Assembly (NCBI RefSeq): GCF_029893805.1
Contig: NZ_JARXYP010000002.1
Location: forward strand, 1,426,001-1,490,000
DNA from: Streptomyces sp. SAI-135
GTDB taxonomy: Bacteria > Actinomycetota > Actinomycetes > Streptomycetales > Streptomycetaceae
Direction: 5' to 3'
Length of the DNA: 64,000 bases
Position 1 is the first letter of the stretch. Every line of letters starts with the position of its first letter. A model generated the notes under the pieces. It worked only from the letters and a program-made list of their open reading frames with translations, was not told where the DNA came from and made no database searches. The translations under genes and the position numbers were made by a program. Below are positions 50,078 through 58,642 of this stretch, piece after piece.

Positions 50078-50677
50078 ATGGAACGCGCCCGATCGCCACT
50101 CGACCGACGGCGGCTGCTGAAGGGGGCCGTCCTGGCGGCCGTACCGTACGTACTGCTTCCCGAGACGCGGGCCGGGGCCGCCCCGCAGCCCGTCGACCAC
50201 CCGCTCGCCGAGTGGCAGCCGGCCACGTCGTCCAACTTCACGGCATCGGACCGCCCCTGGTCCTATGAAGTGGACCGGGTCGTCATCCACGTCACCCAGA
50301 CCACCTACCTCGACGCCCTGGACATCTTCCGGAACCCGGCGAAGCAGGTGTCCGCCCACTACGTCGTGCGCTCGGCCGACGGTCATGTCGCGCAGTGCGT
50401 GCGGGAGGCGGACGTCGCCTGGCACGCCGGGAACTGGGACTACAACACCCGCAGCGTCGGCATCGAGCACGAGGGCTGGGTGGACAGACCCGCCTACTTC
50501 ACCGAGGCCCTCTACCAGGAGTCCGCGAAACTCACCGCGGGGATCTGCGAGAGGTACGGCATCCCCAGGGACCGCGCACACATCATCGGTCACTACGAGG
50601 TGCCGGGCACGGACCACACCGACCCGGGACCGTACTGGGACTGGGATCGCTACCTGCGCATGGTCGAAGCCGTGTGA
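50078..50677 (+). CDS. Tat-exported N-acetylmuramoyl-L-alanine amidase (Amidase_2)
   Basis: A 199-residue zinc amidase that cuts the bond between MurNAc and L-Ala in peptidoglycan. The N-terminus carries a twin-arginine signal (DRRRLLKGAVLAAVPYVLLP). The Amidase_2 fold is clear: VDRVVIHVTQTTYLDALDIF (first zinc His), SAHYVVRSADGHVAQCVREADVAWHAGNWDYNTRSVGIEHEGW, IIGHYEVPGTDHTDPGPYWDW (zinc His and the terminal H-x-DPG motif). It likely acts in wall turnover or lysis. Start ATG 50078; AAAGGC lies ahead. Confidence 0.94.
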   Translation: MERARSPLDRRRLLKGAVLAAVPYVLLPETRAGAAPQPVDHPLAEWQPATSSNFTASDRPWSYEVDRVVIHVTQTTYLDALDIFRNPAKQVSAHYVVRSADGHVAQCVREADVAWHAGNWDYNTRSVGIEHEGWVDRPAYFTEALYQESAKLTAGICERYGIPRDRAHIIGHYEVPGTDHTDPGPYWDWDRYLRMVEAV

Positions 50678-50774
50678 GCCGGACATCGTTCGGGTGACGC
50701 CGGTCGAAGAGGTTGTTTGCGCGCGCACCGGGAGTGACGATGTCCCCGACCGCATCGCGTTCCGGGAGGCCGAC

Positions 50775-52055
50775 TTGACCGATCCATGGGTGGCCCTGGA
50801 GCCGGGGGCCGACCCTGCCGAGCGGGTCCGGCTGCTGCGGCGCGCGCACGAGACGTTCACCGAGGCGGGCACGGTGCAGCGGCCGGTCCGCCCGGTGGTG
50901 GCCGACTCGTGGCGGCGCTCCGCGCGGGCCGGGGTCGGGCCGGACGGGACGGCGGACGTCGAACTCGGTGACGGTGACCTCGGCCCGTACCGGGCCGAGC
51001 ATCCGCTGGCGCGGGTCATGCCGCTGTTCCGCGAGCTGATGGGGACCTTCGCGTTCGACGGGGAGCACCTGCTCGCGGTGTGCGACGAGCACGGCAGGCT
51101 GCTGTGGGTCGAGGGCCATGCCCGGACCCGCCGGCAGGCGGAGTGGATGAACTTCGTGCCGGGTGCGCGGTGGGCGGAGACCGCGGTGGGGACGAACGCC
51201 CCGGGTACGGCGGTCGCGGTGGACCGGCCGGTGCAGGTGTTCGCGGCGGAGCACTTCATCCGCCGGGTGCAGCCGTGGACCTGCGCGGCGGCACCGGTCC
51301 ACGATCCGCGGACCGGGCGGGTGCTGGGGGCCGTGGACATCACCGGCGGCGACGGGCTCGCGCATCCGCACAGCCTGGGCTTCGTCCAGGCGGTCGCGCG
51401 GGCCGCCGAGTCCCAGCTGGCGCTGCTCCTGCCGCAGCAGCCGGAAGCCGACAGGACCGAGCTGAGTGCGCTGGGCCGGGACGAGGCGCTGCTGGTCGGG
51501 GCCGGCCGCAGGGTCAGGCTCAGCCGCAGGCACAGCGAGATCCTGGTGCTGCTGTCCCGGCATCCGGAGGGCCTGACCGGGGACGAGTTGCTGTGCGCGC
51601 TGTACGAGGACGAGTCGGTGACGCCGGTGACGCTGCGGGCCGAACTGGCACGGCTGCGCAGGGTGCTCGGCCCCGGACTGCTGGCGTCACGGCCGTACCG
51701 GCTGACTGTGCCGGTCGAGTCGGACGTGGCGGTCGTGGAGCGGCGGCTGGAGAGCGGGGCGGTGACGGCGGCGGCGCGCGGGTACGGCGGACCGCTGCTG
51801 CCGGCTTCGCAGGCCCCGGCGGTGGTGCAGCTCAGGCGCCGGGTCGCCGACGGGCTGCGCACGGCGCTCATCTCCCGCCGGGACCCCGACCTCCTGGCGG
51901 ACTGGGCGCACGCGGCGTGGGGCGAGGACGACCTAGAGGTGTGGCGGGCGCTCGCGGCCGTACGGCCCACGGCGAGCGTCCGGGCCCGCCTGGCCGCGCT
52001 GGAGGCCGAGCTGGCCGCGCCGACGGCAACGTGGTTGCAACGTCCGCGCTCCTAG
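50775..52055 (+). CDS. GAF-domain transcriptional regulator (AcoR-like, no AAA domain)
   Basis: A 426-residue regulator starting at TTG 50775, preceded by GGGAGG five bases away; the reading further upstream runs through the amidase gene and is not credible. Residues 20-190 hold a GAF-type sensor of the AcoR kind (FDGEHLLAVCDEHGRLLWVEG, WAETAVGTNAPGTAVAVDRPVQVFAAEHFI, TCAAAPVHDPRTGRVLGAVDITGG). The sigma-54 AAA domain of AcoR is absent; instead LSRRHSEILVLLSRHPEGLTGDELLCALYEDESVTPVTLRAELARLRRVLG is a winged helix. It probably controls the aldehyde dehydrogenase that follows. Confidence 0.88.
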   Translation: MTDPWVALEPGADPAERVRLLRRAHETFTEAGTVQRPVRPVVADSWRRSARAGVGPDGTADVELGDGDLGPYRAEHPLARVMPLFRELMGTFAFDGEHLLAVCDEHGRLLWVEGHARTRRQAEWMNFVPGARWAETAVGTNAPGTAVAVDRPVQVFAAEHFIRRVQPWTCAAAPVHDPRTGRVLGAVDITGGDGLAHPHSLGFVQAVARAAESQLALLLPQQPEADRTELSALGRDEALLVGAGRRVRLSRRHSEILVLLSRHPEGLTGDELLCALYEDESVTPVTLRAELARLRRVLGPGLLASRPYRLTVPVESDVAVVERRLESGAVTAAARGYGGPLLPASQAPAVVQLRRRVADGLRTALISRRDPDLLADWAHAAWGEDDLEVWRALAAVRPTASVRARLAALEAELAAPTATWLQRPRS

Positions 52056-54317: not shown

Positions 54318-55259
54318 GTGCGCAGAATCGCCGCGCTGTCACTGCTGTCACTGCTGTTGCTCGCCACGATCGCCGCCTGCGGGCCGGGCGACCCGGGCGT
54401 GCCCGCCGCGCGCGCCGAGCCGGACACGGGGCTCCCGCGCGAAGCCACCACCCGTGAACTCACCACCCTGCGCCGGGCCGAGAACATCCTGGAGCGGCGC
54501 TGCATGGCTCGCGCCGGATTCCACCTGCCCGCGGCACCCGAACCGGTCCGCACCGGCCCCGAGCCGCCACCGATGGCGCTCGTCCTGGCCGATCCCGTCT
54601 GGGCGCGCGAGCACGGCTACGGCGCCCGCGTGCGCACCCCGCAGGAGACCGCCCGGCTGCGCGCGGACGACCCCGTGGGCGACCACCTGAGGGCGTTGCC
54701 CGCCGAGCGGCGTGCGCAGGCGCTGCGTGCCTGGCAGGGCGGTGGTGTCGACACCGTGGAGGTCACCCTCCCCAGTGGGATGACGACCGGGCGCAGCACT
54801 CGCGGCTGCACCAGCGAGGCGCGGGGCGAGTTGTACGGCGACTTCCGCACCTGGTTCGGCGCGGACGCCGTGGACCGCGGGGTCACGGCGCTGGCCCTGA
54901 GCCGGGCGCAGGCGGATCCCGGCTTCACGCGAGCACTGCGGGGCTGGTCGGACTGTGTGGCCGGGCGCGGGCTGCCGTACCGGTCGCCGCTCCGGCTGCG
55001 GGCCGCGCTCGGCGACTCGGCGCCTGCGGCCAAGGAGATCGAGTACGCCGTCGCCGAGGCAGCGTGCGCCGTCGGCTCCGGCCTCGCGGAGGTCGCGGAG
55101 CGCGTCGAGAAGCGGCACCTCGCGCAGGTGCGTGAGCAGTACCTCGCCGACGTGCACAACGCCCGCCGGATGCGGCTCGCCGCGCTGCCGAGGGCGGATC
55201 GGATCGTCCGCGACGACGACTCGTCGACGATCAACACCCACACGGGAGGCATGAGATGA
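54318..55259 (+). CDS. Hypothetical secreted lipoprotein
   Basis: A 313-residue exported protein that I do not assign to a family. GTG 54318 has GGGGAG at five bases. The N-terminal hydrophobic segment ends in a lipobox (LLLATIAACGPG), so it is probably lipid-anchored to the membrane. The mature part is helical and Arg-rich, with cysteine pairs (ERRCMARAGFHLP, RGCTSEARGELYGDF, WSDCVAGRG, EAACAVGSGLAE) spaced as in secreted Streptomyces proteins. Its stop overlaps the next start (ATGA), coupling it to the I36-like gene. Confidence 0.8.
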   Translation: MRRIAALSLLSLLLLATIAACGPGDPGVPAARAEPDTGLPREATTRELTTLRRAENILERRCMARAGFHLPAAPEPVRTGPEPPPMALVLADPVWAREHGYGARVRTPQETARLRADDPVGDHLRALPAERRAQALRAWQGGGVDTVEVTLPSGMTTGRSTRGCTSEARGELYGDFRTWFGADAVDRGVTALALSRAQADPGFTRALRGWSDCVAGRGLPYRSPLRLRAALGDSAPAAKEIEYAVAEAACAVGSGLAEVAERVEKRHLAQVREQYLADVHNARRMRLAALPRADRIVRDDDSSTINTHTGGMR

Positions 55260-55792
55260 AGCGATACCTACGAAGCGCCCTGGCCACAGCGGCGGTGATC
55301 GGGCTGCTCACCACGGCCGGCCCCGCCATGGCCGCCTCGGAGGCCGGGCCCTCCGCGCCCACGGCGACCGGTGCCACACCTGGCGCACCGACCCCGGTGC
55401 GGCCCGGCACCGACCTCAGTCAACTGGCCGCCGCCGACGGCGCGGACGGCTACCTCTACGCCTACGACCTGCCCAACTTCCAGGGCGACTGGTGCCGGTG
55501 GGACCGCGACGACGAGTGGTGGGGCAACGACTGCGGCAACTTCAACGACCGCGCGACGTCGGTCTGGAACAACGGTTTCCCCGGCCTCTTCAGCGAGGTC
55601 TCGCTGCGCCGCGACGTGAGCCCCAGCACGAACCAGTCGATGTTCTGCATCGAGGCCGGCAACTACTACGCCGACCTGTCGCTCGGCTACGAGAAGTTCC
55701 TCGACGGCGGCTGGGCGGACAACGCGGTCAGCGGACACCACTGGTTCACCGACGACGCGGACTACATCCACGACCCGCACTACGCCTGCTGA
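55256..55792 (+). CDS. Secreted peptidase-inhibitor I36 / beta-gamma-crystallin-like protein
   Basis: A 178-residue secreted protein with signal peptide (ATAAVIGLLTTAGPAMAA), a Thr/Pro/Gly linker and a compact C-terminal domain: GYLYAYDLPNFQGDWCRWDRDDEWW, DRATSVWNNGFPGLFSEVSLRRD, MFCIEAGNYYADLSLGYEKFLDGGWADNAVSGHHWF. This resembles peptidase inhibitor family I36 (SMI-type), a crystallin-like fold. Whether it inhibits a protease or binds wall material is unknown. Coupled to the lipoprotein upstream and 14 bases ahead of the amidase gene, it appears to be part of one operon. Confidence 0.85.
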   Translation: MKRYLRSALATAAVIGLLTTAGPAMAASEAGPSAPTATGATPGAPTPVRPGTDLSQLAAADGADGYLYAYDLPNFQGDWCRWDRDDEWWGNDCGNFNDRATSVWNNGFPGLFSEVSLRRDVSPSTNQSMFCIEAGNYYADLSLGYEKFLDGGWADNAVSGHHWFTDDADYIHDPHYAC

Positions 55793-55806
55793 CCGGAGCG
55801 ACGAAC

Positions 55807-57291
55807 GTGACGATCACCATCAACGAACGTGACACCTGGGGACAGTACGCTCCCGAAGAGGTGCGGGCCCATGCCTCGGCCCCGCCCGAGGCCAACCTGA
55901 AAGAGCCGTGGTCCGGACACATGGGTGTGTTCCTGCACCACCTCGGCGCCGGCAGCACCAGCGACCTCCGGACGGAGGAAGACTGCCGCCGGACCGTCGC
56001 CAAGATCTACTGGGACCACAAGAGCAGCGGCGAGTACTACGGAGACATCGCCTACAACTTCCTCGTATGCCCGCACGGACAGGTCTACGAGGGGCGTGGA
56101 TACGAGCGCGGCGAGGGGAACCAGGGCCTCGCCGGCGACATCGAGGGTGTCGGGCGCAACGCGGGCTTCTACTCGATCGTGGGCATGATCCGCTCGCAGG
56201 ACGTGCCGACCGAGACCCTCCTGCGTTCGATCAGGGGCCTGATCGACCATCTTCGTCACGACGCCCCGCGCAACAGGACCGGGGACAGGATCTTCCCGCA
56301 CTCCTTCAACTACGAGACCGACTGCCCCGGCAACCTGCACATGTACGCCCGACCGGGATCGGTGGTCGACCCGTCCGCTGCGTGGCGGGCGCTTCCCGAC
56401 ATCTACGTGTCCCGGACGCAGAGGTGGGTGAACAACACCTACAAGACGGCGCCCGGATACGTGATCTGCTCCGAAACCGGCTACACCGGCTGGAACACCG
56501 TCCTCGCCCTCACCCAGGGGCTTCAGCACGAACTCGGCATCTCCCCCACCGTCCAGAACTTCGGCCCCGGCACGTTCGACGCGGTGAGGAACCACGAGCT
56601 CGTGCCGGAGTTCGAGCGGAACGAGAACCTGCTGCGCCTGTACAACGGGGCACTGTGGTGCAAGGGCTACTGGGCCTCCCAGACCCTGGGCGGATGGGGC
56701 GAGGATCCCGAGACGTCCCTGCGGCAGCTCTACGCCGACATGGGTCTGAACGCCGCGGACGCCGGGCAGCGCCTGGCCATGTGGCCGCATGTGCTGAAGG
56801 CGCTGCTGCGCATGGACCAGTTCCGGCTCGTGCCCGGTGGTGACCCCCATGTCCGGGCGATCCAGCAGCGGCTGAACTCCCGCTATGTCGCGGGGATCGG
56901 GATCCCGGCGATGAGTCTTGTGCCCTGCGACGGGATCTACTCCCGTGATGTCCAGCAGGGCCTCATGATGGCCATTCAGTACGAGATCGGGATCGCCCCC
57001 GGGTTCGATCAACGGGTACTTCGGACCGGGAACGCAGGCAGCCCTCAAGGGGAGGGGCTCGGCGACCCTCTCGGGAGATCTGCGGTACCTGTTCCGTGCC
57101 GCGTGCTACTTCAACTCACCGACGTACACGGCGAACGGGCAGGCGCACTACCTGTCGGCGGACATCGGCACCGATGCCCAGACCGGCACGCACACCGGGT
57201 GGCTGCAGGCCTTCCAGAGGTTCTCCCAGCTCCCCGTCACGGGCCACAACGACTACGCGACGTGGGCGCAGCTCCTCGTGTCGTCCGGTGA
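55807..57291 (+). CDS. Amidase and peptidoglycan-binding part of a frameshifted cell-wall hydrolase
   Basis: Starts at GTG 55807 behind CGGAG. Residues 1-200 form a PGRP/Amidase_2-like domain (RDTWGQYAPEE, GVFLHHLGAGSTSD, YGDIAYNFLVCPHGQVYEGRGYERGEG, NYETDCPGNLHMYA). Residues 210-400 contain two peptidoglycan-binding-like repeats (VLALTQGLQHELGISPTVQNFGPGTFDAV; DPHVRAIQQRLNSRY). From base 57004 the frame is wrong: the natural continuation (SINGYFGPGTQAALKGRG) lies in the +1 frame and leads into the DUF1906 domain at 57278-57955. The last 95 residues of this frame are nonsense. No signal peptide is visible. Confidence 0.8.
   Translation: MTITINERDTWGQYAPEEVRAHASAPPEANLKEPWSGHMGVFLHHLGAGSTSDLRTEEDCRRTVAKIYWDHKSSGEYYGDIAYNFLVCPHGQVYEGRGYERGEGNQGLAGDIEGVGRNAGFYSIVGMIRSQDVPTETLLRSIRGLIDHLRHDAPRNRTGDRIFPHSFNYETDCPGNLHMYARPGSVVDPSAAWRALPDIYVSRTQRWVNNTYKTAPGYVICSETGYTGWNTVLALTQGLQHELGISPTVQNFGPGTFDAVRNHELVPEFERNENLLRLYNGALWCKGYWASQTLGGWGEDPETSLRQLYADMGLNAADAGQRLAMWPHVLKALLRMDQFRLVPGGDPHVRAIQQRLNSRYVAGIGIPAMSLVPCDGIYSRDVQQGLMMAIQYEIGIAPGFDQRVLRTGNAGSPQGEGLGDPLGRSAVPVPCRVLLQLTDVHGERAGALPVGGHRHRCPDRHAHRVAAGLPEVLPAPRHGPQRLRDVGAAPRVVR
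57001..57006 (+). other. Apparent single-base insertion (frameshift site)
   Basis: Run CCCCCGGGTTCG: removing one base here joins IGIAPG to SINGYFGPG and restores a 715-residue reading from 55807 to 57955. Cause may be a sequencing error in a GC run, a real mutation, or less likely a programmed shift. Confidence 0.75.
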
Positions 57292-57955
57292 CACCTCACG
57301 CGACGCCACCGGCTGCGACTGCATCACCGAGATCACCCCGCAGCGTGGTCAGTTGCTCAAGTCCAACGGCTACCGCATCGTCGGCCGCTACCTCGACGAG
57401 CATCTGGCCCCGGGCGACGACGGCTATCTCGGCAAGGCGCTCAAGCCCGGAGAGCCGCAGACCATTCTGAACGCCGGGCTCAGGTTCTTCCCCATCTTCC
57501 AGTACAACGGCACGCAACTGGGCAACTTCACCTACGACAAGGGCTACGACCAGGGCAAGAAGGCCCACGCCAAGGCCGTCGAACACGGAATCGGCGCCGG
57601 TACCTGCATCTACTTCGGGGTCGACTACGACGCGACCGACGAGGAGATCACCAGCCATGTCGTGCCGTACTTCAACGGCGTCAGGGCCGGCCTCGCCGAA
57701 CTCGGCAGCCGCTACACCTTCGGCGTCTACGGCTCCCGCAACGTGTGCATCCGGGTGTCGAAGGACGCCGGCGCCCGCTGGTCGTTCGTCTCCGGGATGT
57801 CCTGGGGGTTCTCCGGGAACCTCGGATTCCCGCTGCCGGAGAACTGGTCGTTCAACCAGATCCACGAGTACCAGTTCCAGCCGGGCTGGGGCCTGGACCA
57901 CAACATCTGGCGGGACGGCGGCGATCCCGGTGTCTCCGCCGTCGGCCAGGGATGA
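57278..57955 (+). CDS. DUF1906 glycoside-hydrolase-like domain (C-terminal part of the frameshifted protein)
   Basis: Frame is open from 57005, but its first start codon is GTG 57278, without a ribosome site, so it is best read as the continuation of the preceding gene. The domain is the Rv2525c-like DUF1906 TIM barrel: DATGCDCITEITPQRGQLLKSNGYRIVGRYLDEH, PIFQYNGTQLGNFTYDKGYDQGKKAHAKAVEHG, TCIYFGVDYDATDEEI, YTFGVYGSRNVC and the C-terminal DHNIWRDGGDPG. Such domains are linked to wall glycan cleavage. Together with the amidase part it forms a two-activity wall hydrolase. Confidence 0.8.
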   Translation: MSSGDTSRDATGCDCITEITPQRGQLLKSNGYRIVGRYLDEHLAPGDDGYLGKALKPGEPQTILNAGLRFFPIFQYNGTQLGNFTYDKGYDQGKKAHAKAVEHGIGAGTCIYFGVDYDATDEEITSHVVPYFNGVRAGLAELGSRYTFGVYGSRNVCIRVSKDAGARWSFVSGMSWGFSGNLGFPLPENWSFNQIHEYQFQPGWGLDHNIWRDGGDPGVSAVGQG

Positions 57956-57967
57956 GGGAGGAAGTCG

Positions 57968-58642
57968 ATGATCTCCAGACGCACTCTGCTGGGTGCCGCC
58001 GGCACCGGCCTGCTGGTCGTGGCGTCGGGCACCCTGGCAGGCCCCGTCGCGGCGGCCGCGCCACGCGCCGGGGCCTGGACGGGGGACGTGTCCGCCAACG
58101 GATGGCGGATCGATCCCTCCGCCGTGACCGTGCACCCCGTCGAGGGGTCCGCCGCGTCGCTCGGCCTGCGCGGTGGTGAGGCCGCGGCGGTGCTGCTGCA
58201 CGTCGCGCGGCGCTGGCACTACGAGATCGCCCCGCTGGACACGGGTGAGGGCGGCGGCGTCACCGGTGCCACCACACGGCGCACGGTCGGTGCCGACTTC
58301 GAGTCCAACCACCTCTCCGGCACCGCGATCGCGCTGCACCCCGCCGCCTATCCGCTGAAGGGGAGCGAGGGGCTGTGGCCGCACCAGGAGGCGATCGTGC
58401 GGGACATCCTCGCGGACTGTGACGGAACGGTCGTGTGGGGCGGTGACCTGGCTCCGGTGAAGGTCTCGCACTTCCACATCGCCGTCCGCCCCGGTGACAG
58501 GACCCTGGCACGGGTCGCGGCCCGGCTGGACGGCAGCCGGGCCACCGGGCCCCGCACGCAGACCGCCGGCACCGTGGCCGACCCGGCGGCCCCGGCCCGC
58601 CGTGCCAAGTCCCGGCGCCTGCACCGGGCTCAGGGCACCTGA
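57968..58642 (+). CDS. Tat-exported M15-like peptidase homologue with altered metal motif
   Basis: A 224-residue exported protein. ATG 57968 has GGGAGGAAG ahead; the signal is twin-arginine (MISRRTLLGAAGTGLLVVAS). The mature part resembles M15 D-Ala-D-Ala carboxypeptidase/endolysin folds: DFESNHLSGTAIALHP matches SxHxxGxAxD, and VVWGGDLAPVKVSHFHIAV matches the WGGD...HxH end. In the first motif the Asp ligand is replaced (TAIA instead of TAID), so zinc binding or activity may be lost or changed. The C-terminus is Ala/Arg-rich. It follows the DUF1906 part by 12 bases, last gene of the run. Confidence 0.72.
   Translation: MISRRTLLGAAGTGLLVVASGTLAGPVAAAAPRAGAWTGDVSANGWRIDPSAVTVHPVEGSAASLGLRGGEAAAVLLHVARRWHYEIAPLDTGEGGGVTGATTRRTVGADFESNHLSGTAIALHPAAYPLKGSEGLWPHQEAIVRDILADCDGTVVWGGDLAPVKVSHFHIAVRPGDRTLARVAARLDGSRATGPRTQTAGTVADPAAPARRAKSRRLHRAQGT

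What the first reader, a model, noticed from the sequence alone, without database searches (positions are those of the whole stretch)
54318..58642. Compact envelope-enzyme operon: lipoprotein, I36-like protein, amidase-DUF1906 and M15-like protein
Four or five genes run tightly on one strand, with ATGA coupling and 12-15 base gaps, and combine a lipid-anchored protein, a secreted crystallin-like inhibitor, a two-activity wall hydrolase and an M15-like protein. The set resembles a dedicated wall-remodelling or wall-attack cassette in which the I36 and lipoprotein parts could be immunity or regulatory factors. I know of no described system with this composition. This is the best candidate here for an undescribed system.
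Basis: inference. Interest (0 to 1): 0.6.

Follow-up and report, generated by a model that had tools for sequence, protein, structure and literature searches.

The report
Variant wall-hydrolase cassette with dead-peptidase partner
Four neighbouring Streptomyces genes combine a cell-wall-cutting enzyme, frame-shifted in this genome, and its regular partner, a peptidase look-alike whose catalytic site is lost, with a separate lipoprotein and inhibitor pair, and look like a stripped-down relative of a recently predicted bacterial weapon system.

Summary
The genes are real, tightly spaced and under purifying selection, but two corrections apply. (1) The hydrolase is not one open frame here: its amidase half and DUF1906 half lie in different frames that meet around 57,000-57,010, whereas all 15 amidase-type relatives examined are single frames. 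(2) The set is two conserved modules. Module B, hydrolase plus M15-like protein: 36 of 38 hydrolase copies in 121 Streptomyces genomes have the M15-like gene downstream on the same strand. Module A, lipoprotein plus I36-like protein: a widespread pair (27 of the 30 best loci), independent of B genome-wide (p = 0.50) but found joined to B in three or four arrangements.

Module B is close to a conflict system predicted in 2025 (PMC12419801: peptidoglycan-binding domains, Rv2525c-like barrel, TelC toxin tip, 3-TM protein, secreted VanY-like protein). In the window's clade, a single origin, tip and 3-TM gene are absent and an N-terminal amidase is present. The M15/VanY-like partner lacks the His-Asp-His zinc set in 58 of 59 sequences, so it is probably a binder, not a peptidase. 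Most likely this is a leaderless bacteriolysin with an exported non-catalytic protective or cofactor protein. Function is inferred; no experiment.

The parts
54318..55259 (+). Lipoprotein (GTG start, lipobox IAAC), module A, no named family
   Evidence: homologs in 43 of 121 genomes at E<=1e-8; dN/dS 0.24-0.35 against four close relatives; AlphaFold pLDDT 59, mostly helical, inconclusive
55256..55792 (+). Small secreted I36-like protein, module A; ATGA overlap with the lipoprotein
   Evidence: 27 of the 30 best lipoprotein loci have such a gene next; Pfam I36 matches 16 of 33 family members at E<=0.01
55807..57955 (+). Wall hydrolase gene without recognisable export signal: N-terminal Amidase_2, peptidoglycan-binding region, Rv2525c-like (DUF1906) domain; frame broken once around 57,000-57,010
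55924..56334 (+). Amidase_2 (PGRP-type) domain; H, Y, H, C of the expected zinc site invariant in 16 of 16
   Evidence: which residues bind zinc is recalled knowledge of the family
57203..57274 (+). PG_binding_1 match, in the second frame
57356..57880 (+). Rv2525c-like glycoside-hydrolase-like domain, in the second frame; D205, D207, D296 of this piece invariant in 68 of 68, D103 and E148 in 67 of 68
57968..58642 (+). Tat-type (RR) M15/VanY-like protein with degenerate zinc site: H115 and H168 kept, the Asp position is A122, the catalytic acidic position is K165

Best explanation
The locus is a derived relative of the actinobacterial wall-engaging conflict cassettes built on a leaderless peptidoglycan-binding plus Rv2525c-like protein. 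Shown: the hydrolase family carries an amidase with conserved zinc residues and an Rv2525c-like domain with conserved acidic residues, mostly has no recognisable export signal, and is coupled to a Tat-type M15/VanY-like protein whose catalytic site is lost. Inferred: the hydrolase leaves the cell by lysis of part of the population or by an unknown route, binds the wall of neighbouring cells and cuts the MurNAc-L-Ala bond (amidase) and perhaps glycan (Rv2525c-like); the exported dead M15-like protein binds peptide stems or the hydrolase and either protects the producer's own wall or aids the hydrolase; the I36-like protein and lipoprotein are an add-on exported pair, plausibly protease inhibition and surface retention that spares the released enzyme. 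In this genome the hydrolase frame is broken, so the cassette is inactive here unless that is a sequencing error.
For: Pairing: 26 genomes both, 1 hydrolase only, 1 M15 only, 93 neither (Fisher 3.7e-24); 36 of 38 hydrolase places have the M15-like gene downstream within 1.6 kb. All 15 amidase-type rows (14 distinct; L069 and L141 are one record) have M15 next, no C-terminal extension and no TM gene; the amidase type is one origin in the core tree, 17 rows, support 100/99. M15 zinc positions: His 17 of 59, Asp 1 of 59, His 39 of 59; all three only in L167; the homolog in Gordonia phage Periwinkle has all three. RR plus hydrophobic stretch in 54 of 58 M15-like frames. Fold: Foldseek's top two are LdcB/VanY-like and VanY (E 0.04 and 0.96); VIA Z 4-5 to hedgehog, DacB, VanXY, Ply500, ChiX. 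Amidase and Rv2525c-like residues invariant or nearly so. Among 58 of 67 hydrolases whose conserved start was recognised, none has a hydrophobic stretch behind it and 54 have none in the 60 codons before it. Enterococcal relative in an operon with a bacL2 gene, 36% over 310 aa. B. amyloliquefaciens YbfG, a DUF1906 protein, is listed in pellicle and cell-free liquid (PMC12020853, passages).
Against: No experiment shows killing, lysis or protection. The toxin tip and 3-TM protein that mark the described conflict system are absent. A housekeeping wall-remodelling enzyme could also be conserved and paired. Export signals were judged by hydropathy and the RR motif only; four hydrolases (L072, L076, L116, L161) have an open frame with a hydrophobic stretch before the conserved start, and 9 of 67 were not scored. 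L147 has His-Glu-His at the zinc positions and may still bind metal. The M15-like model is only pLDDT 66.8, no Z exceeds 5.3, and hedgehog domains, not M15 enzymes, top the Z list. The window's hydrolase is frame-broken.
Confidence: 0.5

Rival explanations
1. Wall remodelling: a developmental autolysin set used by the producer itself (sporulation, hyphal lysis), with the dead M15-like protein as its localiser or brake.
For: Purifying selection on all genes; no toxin tip or TM gene in this clade; another Amidase_2 protein lies at 50078-50677.
Against: Patchy: present in 27 of 121 genomes; relatives also on plasmids beside transposase genes; hydrolases mostly without a recognisable export signal; relatives described as predicted conflict systems.
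Confidence: 0.3
2. The M15-like protein is a cofactor that positions the hydrolase on peptide stems rather than an immunity factor.
For: Kept with both hydrolase types, with or without the TM gene and the C-terminal extension; in Bac41 BacA is itself a cofactor of BacL1 (PMC9951850, passages).
Against: Export by Tat while the hydrolase looks leaderless means the two are not sent out together; a remnant locus (L132) keeps TM and M15 genes after the hydrolase is mostly lost, as expected of protection, though one locus is little.
Confidence: 0.35
3. Relic phage lysis genes (endolysin pair) rather than a host system.
For: PHROG endolysin matches; Gordonia phage Periwinkle encodes an M15 lysin next to a glycosyl-hydrolase lysin and a holin.
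Against: Phage matches are all under 60% identity, the listed ones at most 36.2%, and none covers 80% of the query (36 of 56 records not listed); spread over several actinobacterial genera; M15 partner carries a Tat-type signal; flanking genes are aldehyde dehydrogenase, DoxX-like and an endonuclease/phosphatase family protein.
Confidence: 0.07
4. Chance neighbours: the lipoprotein and I36 pair merely inserted upstream and has no shared function with the hydrolase.
For: Genome-level independence, p = 0.50; the pair stands without the hydrolase in most loci examined, also twice more in this genome.
Against: Lipoprotein beside the hydrolase in 3 of 38 surveyed loci (G000 and G091 being close kin) against about 0.02 expected (my arithmetic); three or four arrangements: window clade, L076, L121, and L126 with reversed order downstream; genes 12-15 bases apart in the window.
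Confidence: 0.25

Closest known systems
TelC - peptidoglycan-binding - Rv2525c-like cassette of Actinomycetota (Lipocone paper, PMC12419801; section 31 and term-found passages read, not the whole text)
   Same: Peptidoglycan-binding plus Rv2525c-like core; neighbouring secreted VanY-superfamily gene; predicted to act on rival cell walls
   Different: Here no TelC-type tip, no 3TM-CCDN or Ig-domain gene; N-terminal amidase; the VanY-like protein lacks the catalytic site; lipoprotein and I36 pair upstream
BacA of enterococcal bacteriolysin Bac41 (operon with a gene annotated bacL2; identification of the 726-aa protein as BacA is by size and operon, recalled)
   Same: Protein with peptidoglycan-binding and Rv2525c-like domains, 36% identity over 310 aa
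   Different: No BacL1, holin or multi-TM protein found here; the enterococcal protein has a YbfG-type C-terminus (PF21015)
M15 peptidases LdcB/DacB/VanY/VanX/Ply500 and phage M15 lysins
   Same: Sequence kinship to phage M15 lysins (E 2e-8) and weak fold resemblance
   Different: Zinc Asp and catalytic acidic positions replaced
Peptidase inhibitor family I36 (SMPI type, recalled)
   Same: Pfam match just over cut-off
   Different: Target unknown; sits after a lipoprotein in a conserved pair

Membership tests
TelC/PGBD/Rv2525c conflict cassette (PMC12419801) | Rv2525c-like TIM barrel with peptidoglycan-binding domains | tested here: met
   PF08924 1.9e-49 and PF01471 4.8e-5 in the second-frame piece
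TelC/PGBD/Rv2525c conflict cassette (PMC12419801) | TelC toxin domain | tested here: not met
   0-5 aa after the Rv2525c-like domain in 15 of 15 amidase-type rows; in the window the gene ends likewise. Relatives without amidase mostly have 215-307 aa there, whose class-0 profile has 5ukh as top PDB hit at only E 0.063 (that 5ukh is TelC is recalled)
TelC/PGBD/Rv2525c conflict cassette (PMC12419801) | neighbouring 3TM-CCDN or Ig-domain gene | tested here: not met
   M15-like gene starts 12 bases after the hydrolase; no TM gene in 15 of 15 amidase-type rows; no Ig domain among the matches
TelC/PGBD/Rv2525c conflict cassette (PMC12419801) | secreted VanY-superfamily gene in the operon | tested here: met
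   57968-58642, RR signal, M15-like
M15 peptidase | zinc ligands His, Asp, His and catalytic acidic residue | tested here: not met
   window: H115, A122, H168, K165; full triad in 1 of 59
M15 peptidase | M15 fold | tested here: inconclusive
   best Foldseek hit LdcB E 0.04; Z 4-5; pLDDT 66.8
PGRP-type amidase (Amidase_2) | family match and conserved zinc residues | tested here: met
   PF01510 5.5e-6; H, Y, H, C invariant 16 of 16
Bac41-type bacteriolysin | BacL1-type endopeptidase partner and downstream multi-TM protein | tested here: not met
   none among the ORFs and the eight proteins scanned between 52112 and 59762
Peptidase inhibitor I36 | Pfam model over cut-off | tested here: met
   21.3 bits against 21.1, borderline
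Killing or immunity function | lytic and protective activity | not testable with these tools
   needs bench work

The most novel reading that the evidence does not exclude
The Tat-exported dead VanY-like protein is the general self-protection factor of a family of leaderless wall-binding bacteriolysins: it stays where the toxin tip is replaced by an amidase and the tip's 3-TM gene is lost, and the lipoprotein and I36 pair is a portable second protection or delivery module that has joined these cassettes several times.
Probability: 0.25. Interest if true: 0.65.

Novelty: new variant of a known kind. Interest (0 to 1): 0.45.

Why it matters
It would define a protein-based antagonism system in antibiotic producers in which a pseudo-peptidase is the regular partner of a wall hydrolase, and it gives a natural experiment: toxin tip and 3-TM gene are absent in one clade while the pseudo-peptidase stays, so the roles of the two partner proteins can be separated by simple co-expression tests. 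The lipoprotein of module A, found in about a third of the Streptomyces genomes sampled (43 of 121), has no function known to me, and its pairing with an I36-like protein makes it testable.

Tried and rejected
One conserved four-gene operon: rejected, module A and module B segregate. Programmed frameshift in the hydrolase: rejected, the 15 amidase-type relatives are single frames. Broken copies do occur elsewhere in the wider family: stops inside matches at G009 C1:4994688 and G045 C16, and for M15 at G001 C336 and G040 C1:4264664; L136 also lacks part of its N-terminus. Strict coupling of C-terminal extension and 3-TM gene: weakened, 14 of 50 hydrolases with an extension have no TM gene detected, among them L078, L079 and L127, the sisters of the amidase clade; some are misses of my scan (L118 has an annotated 142-aa gene there), and the TM rule (two hydrophobic stretches) is loose. 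Extension class follows the two main clades, so the class association (0 of 10,000 shuffles) is not free of shared ancestry. My first regex grouping of extensions and TM proteins was replaced by BLAST clusters. One family of C-terminal extensions: not supported, two classes and the BacA-like tail do not align by profile. A hydrophobic pore-forming tip in Streptomyces: not supported, only L116 and L124 have strongly hydrophobic tails, L127 and L135 marginal ones. Lipoprotein fold: model too poor (pLDDT 59, pTM 0.49), so not searched. PADLOC: no match for 7 proteins. Rfam and tRNA scans of the window: nothing. PDB by sequence: none for the DUF1906 piece or the BacA-like protein, one chance hit for the M15-like protein, PGRPs for the amidase. 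NCBIfam gave no useful match. L077 was scored 'no amidase' only because its contig starts inside the gene; I treated it as amidase type in the tree. L135's 412-aa 'extension' is a frame cut by a transposon. The signal-peptide scan began at the conserved start and could not see upstream extensions, and its RR count (27 of 39 over the threshold) was spoilt by wrong matches; one search replaces both. The iterated I36 profile was trained on the sequences it scored, and the two paralogs outside the training set, are the independent checks.
Full report
What is in the window. On the plus strand are a lipoprotein (54318-55259), an I36-like secreted protein (55256-55792), a hydrolase gene (55807-57955) and an M15-like protein with an RR signal (57968-58642). 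The hydrolase starts with an Amidase_2 domain and ends with an Rv2525c-like (DUF1906) domain, but the two halves are in different frames that meet around 57,000-57,010. One PHROG profile, phrog_15213, runs through both halves in order. All 15 amidase-type relatives examined are one open frame of 708-727 aa, and S. spinoverrucosus differs by a single one-base gap in 1,560 aligned bases. The DUF1906 half is still the most constrained stretch (dN/dS 0.09-0.15 against five close relatives). So the break is recent or a sequencing error.

Module B. In 121 genomes of the genus, the DUF1906 piece matches 38 places in 27 genomes at E<=1e-20 and the M15-like protein 38 places in 27 genomes at E<=1e-8. 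In 36 of 38 the M15-like gene follows on the same strand within 1.6 kb; 26 genomes have both, 1 only the hydrolase, 1 only the M15-like gene, 93 neither (Fisher 3.7e-24, not corrected for kinship). The M15-only genome, G068 (L132), keeps a remnant of the hydrolase's C-terminal end and a TM gene. Beyond Streptomyces the pair occurs in Micromonospora, Paractinoplanes, Virgisporangium and Nonomuraea; it was not found beside the hydrolases of Rathayibacter L080, Leifsonia L082, Curtobacterium L119, Paenarthrobacter L117, Salimicrobium L116 and Enterococcus L124.

Two hydrolase types. In one search I tabulated 67 of 68 loci; L066 gave none, as its contig ends. Fifteen rows (14 distinct) have the N-terminal amidase; none has a C-terminal extension or a TM gene. 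Of 52 rows without amidase, 51 have an extension over 200 aa and 36 a TM gene behind it; the exception, L077, is cut by its contig and is amidase type. The core tree (65 rows) puts the amidase type in one clade of 17 rows (100/99) whose nearest rows, L127 and L078/L079, have the extension but no TM gene detected. So the TM gene was probably lost before the extension was exchanged for the amidase.

What the wider family is. The Lipocone paper (PMC12419801; section 31 read whole, other passages found by term) describes TelC domains fused to peptidoglycan-binding domains and an Rv2525c-like barrel, in Actinomycetota next to an Ig-domain protein or a 3-TM protein with conserved Cys, Cys, Asp and Asn (3TM-CCDN), the latter also with a secreted VanY-superfamily gene, and reads them as conflict systems. 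The larger TM cluster here has a matching C..C..D..N layout by eye, and the class-0 extension has 5ukh as its first but weak PDB hit (E 0.063). I conclude that the extension type, at least class 0, is that described system, and that the window is a derived variant outside its definition. An enterococcal relative of the DUF1906 half (36% over 310 aa) lies in an operon with a bacL2 gene and a holin, with a protein of four hydrophobic stretches behind it. Papers seen in passages state that BacL1 and BacA carry the activity of Bac41 (PMC9951850) and that downstream diversity is linked to specific immunity (PMC8532689).

The M15-like partner. In 59 sequences (window plus 58 loci; L069/L141 are one record and L081/L083 near-copies) the first zinc His is present in 17, the Asp in 1 and the last His in 39; only L167 has all three, and L147 has His-Glu-His. 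Positions around them are kept (Gly 59, Phe 58, Arg 59 of 59). The phage homolog has all three ligands. An RR motif with a hydrophobic stretch precedes the domain in 54 of 58. The model (pLDDT 66.8) finds VanY-type enzymes first in Foldseek and hedgehog and M15 structures in the Z list, all with low scores. In contrast the hydrolase keeps the amidase H, Y, H, C in 16 of 16 and three Asp of the Rv2525c-like domain in 68 of 68. If this partner is the paper's VanY-superfamily protein, the word 'peptidase' does not fit most of the family sampled here.

Export of the hydrolase. In 58 of 67 hydrolases the conserved start could be recognised; none has a hydrophobic stretch behind it and 54 have none in the 60 codons before it; L072, L076, L116 and L161 do have one in an open upstream frame, and 9 loci were not scored. 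In the window any upstream extension would overlap the I36 gene. So most members look leaderless.

Module A. The lipoprotein has homologs in 43 of 121 genomes (56 places, E<=1e-8). Of the 30 best loci 27 have an I36-like gene within 300 bp downstream; L047, L048 and L055 do not. Pfam I36 matches 16 of 33 such proteins at E<=0.01. Two further copies of the pair lie elsewhere in this genome. Genome-wide the lipoprotein and hydrolase are independent (8 of 43 against 19 of 78, p = 0.50), yet three hydrolase loci of 38 have the lipoprotein beside them (G000, G091, G007), against about 0.02 expected by my arithmetic (0.46 copies per genome, 10 kb around each cassette, about 9 Mb genomes). The arrangements differ: upstream in the window clade, in Nonomuraea aridisoli L076 and in N. 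gerenzanensis L121 (lipoprotein E 4.6e-7, I36-like by pattern only), downstream and reversed in G007 (L126). Window clade and L076 may share one event. A DUF5937-like or winged-helix regulator of one family lies next to several loci of both kinds (L034, L063, L064, L072, L076; L051, L057, L061) but none was found in the window.

Mechanism. Shown: composition, pairing, loss of the M15 site, retention of hydrolase sites. Inferred: a leaderless bacteriolysin that reaches rival or sister walls after release and cuts them, with the Tat-exported dead M15-like protein as protector or cofactor and module A as exported accessory. Against this stand the absence of any test and the possibility of ordinary self-remodelling.

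Novelty. New variant of a known kind. I found no description of the amidase type or of the lipoprotein and I36 pair in searches, which cover open-licence papers only; of the hits I read passages or listings.

Noticed in passing
L117, L118, L121, L126, L129, L138, L150-L162, L164-L167 (C-terminal extensions, coordinates): A second class of C-terminal extension (23 loci, about 225-266 aa, motifs RKALIQ and D-S-T-G) unrelated by profile to the TelC-like class, with no credible PDB or Pfam match: a candidate undescribed toxin tip.
   Followed up: partly
L138, L154, L156, L121 (genes behind the hydrolase): A different small 3-TM protein family (EPTENDG-type in three of the four) replaces the Cys-Cys type behind some class-1 hydrolases.
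   Followed up: partly
window 50078-50677 +: A second Amidase_2 protein (E 5.8e-36) with an RR-type start, upstream of a further gene at 50694-52055 and an aldehyde dehydrogenase.
   Followed up: no
G000:C2:8653500-8659500 and G000:C2:283500-289500 (L168, L169): Two more lipoprotein plus I36-like pairs in the same genome.
   Followed up: yes
L072:9486-9998 and L129:3295-3777: Other small secreted proteins fill the slot just before the hydrolase: a PG_binding_1 protein and a ricin-B-type lectin.
   Followed up: partly
L135 (G048:C157), L115, L117: Cassettes beside or cut by transposase genes, two of them on plasmids.
   Followed up: no
L167 (G014:C286) and L147 (G082:C1): The only M15-like partner that keeps His, Asp, His (L167) and one with His, Glu, His (L147); they may be active outliers.
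   Followed up: no
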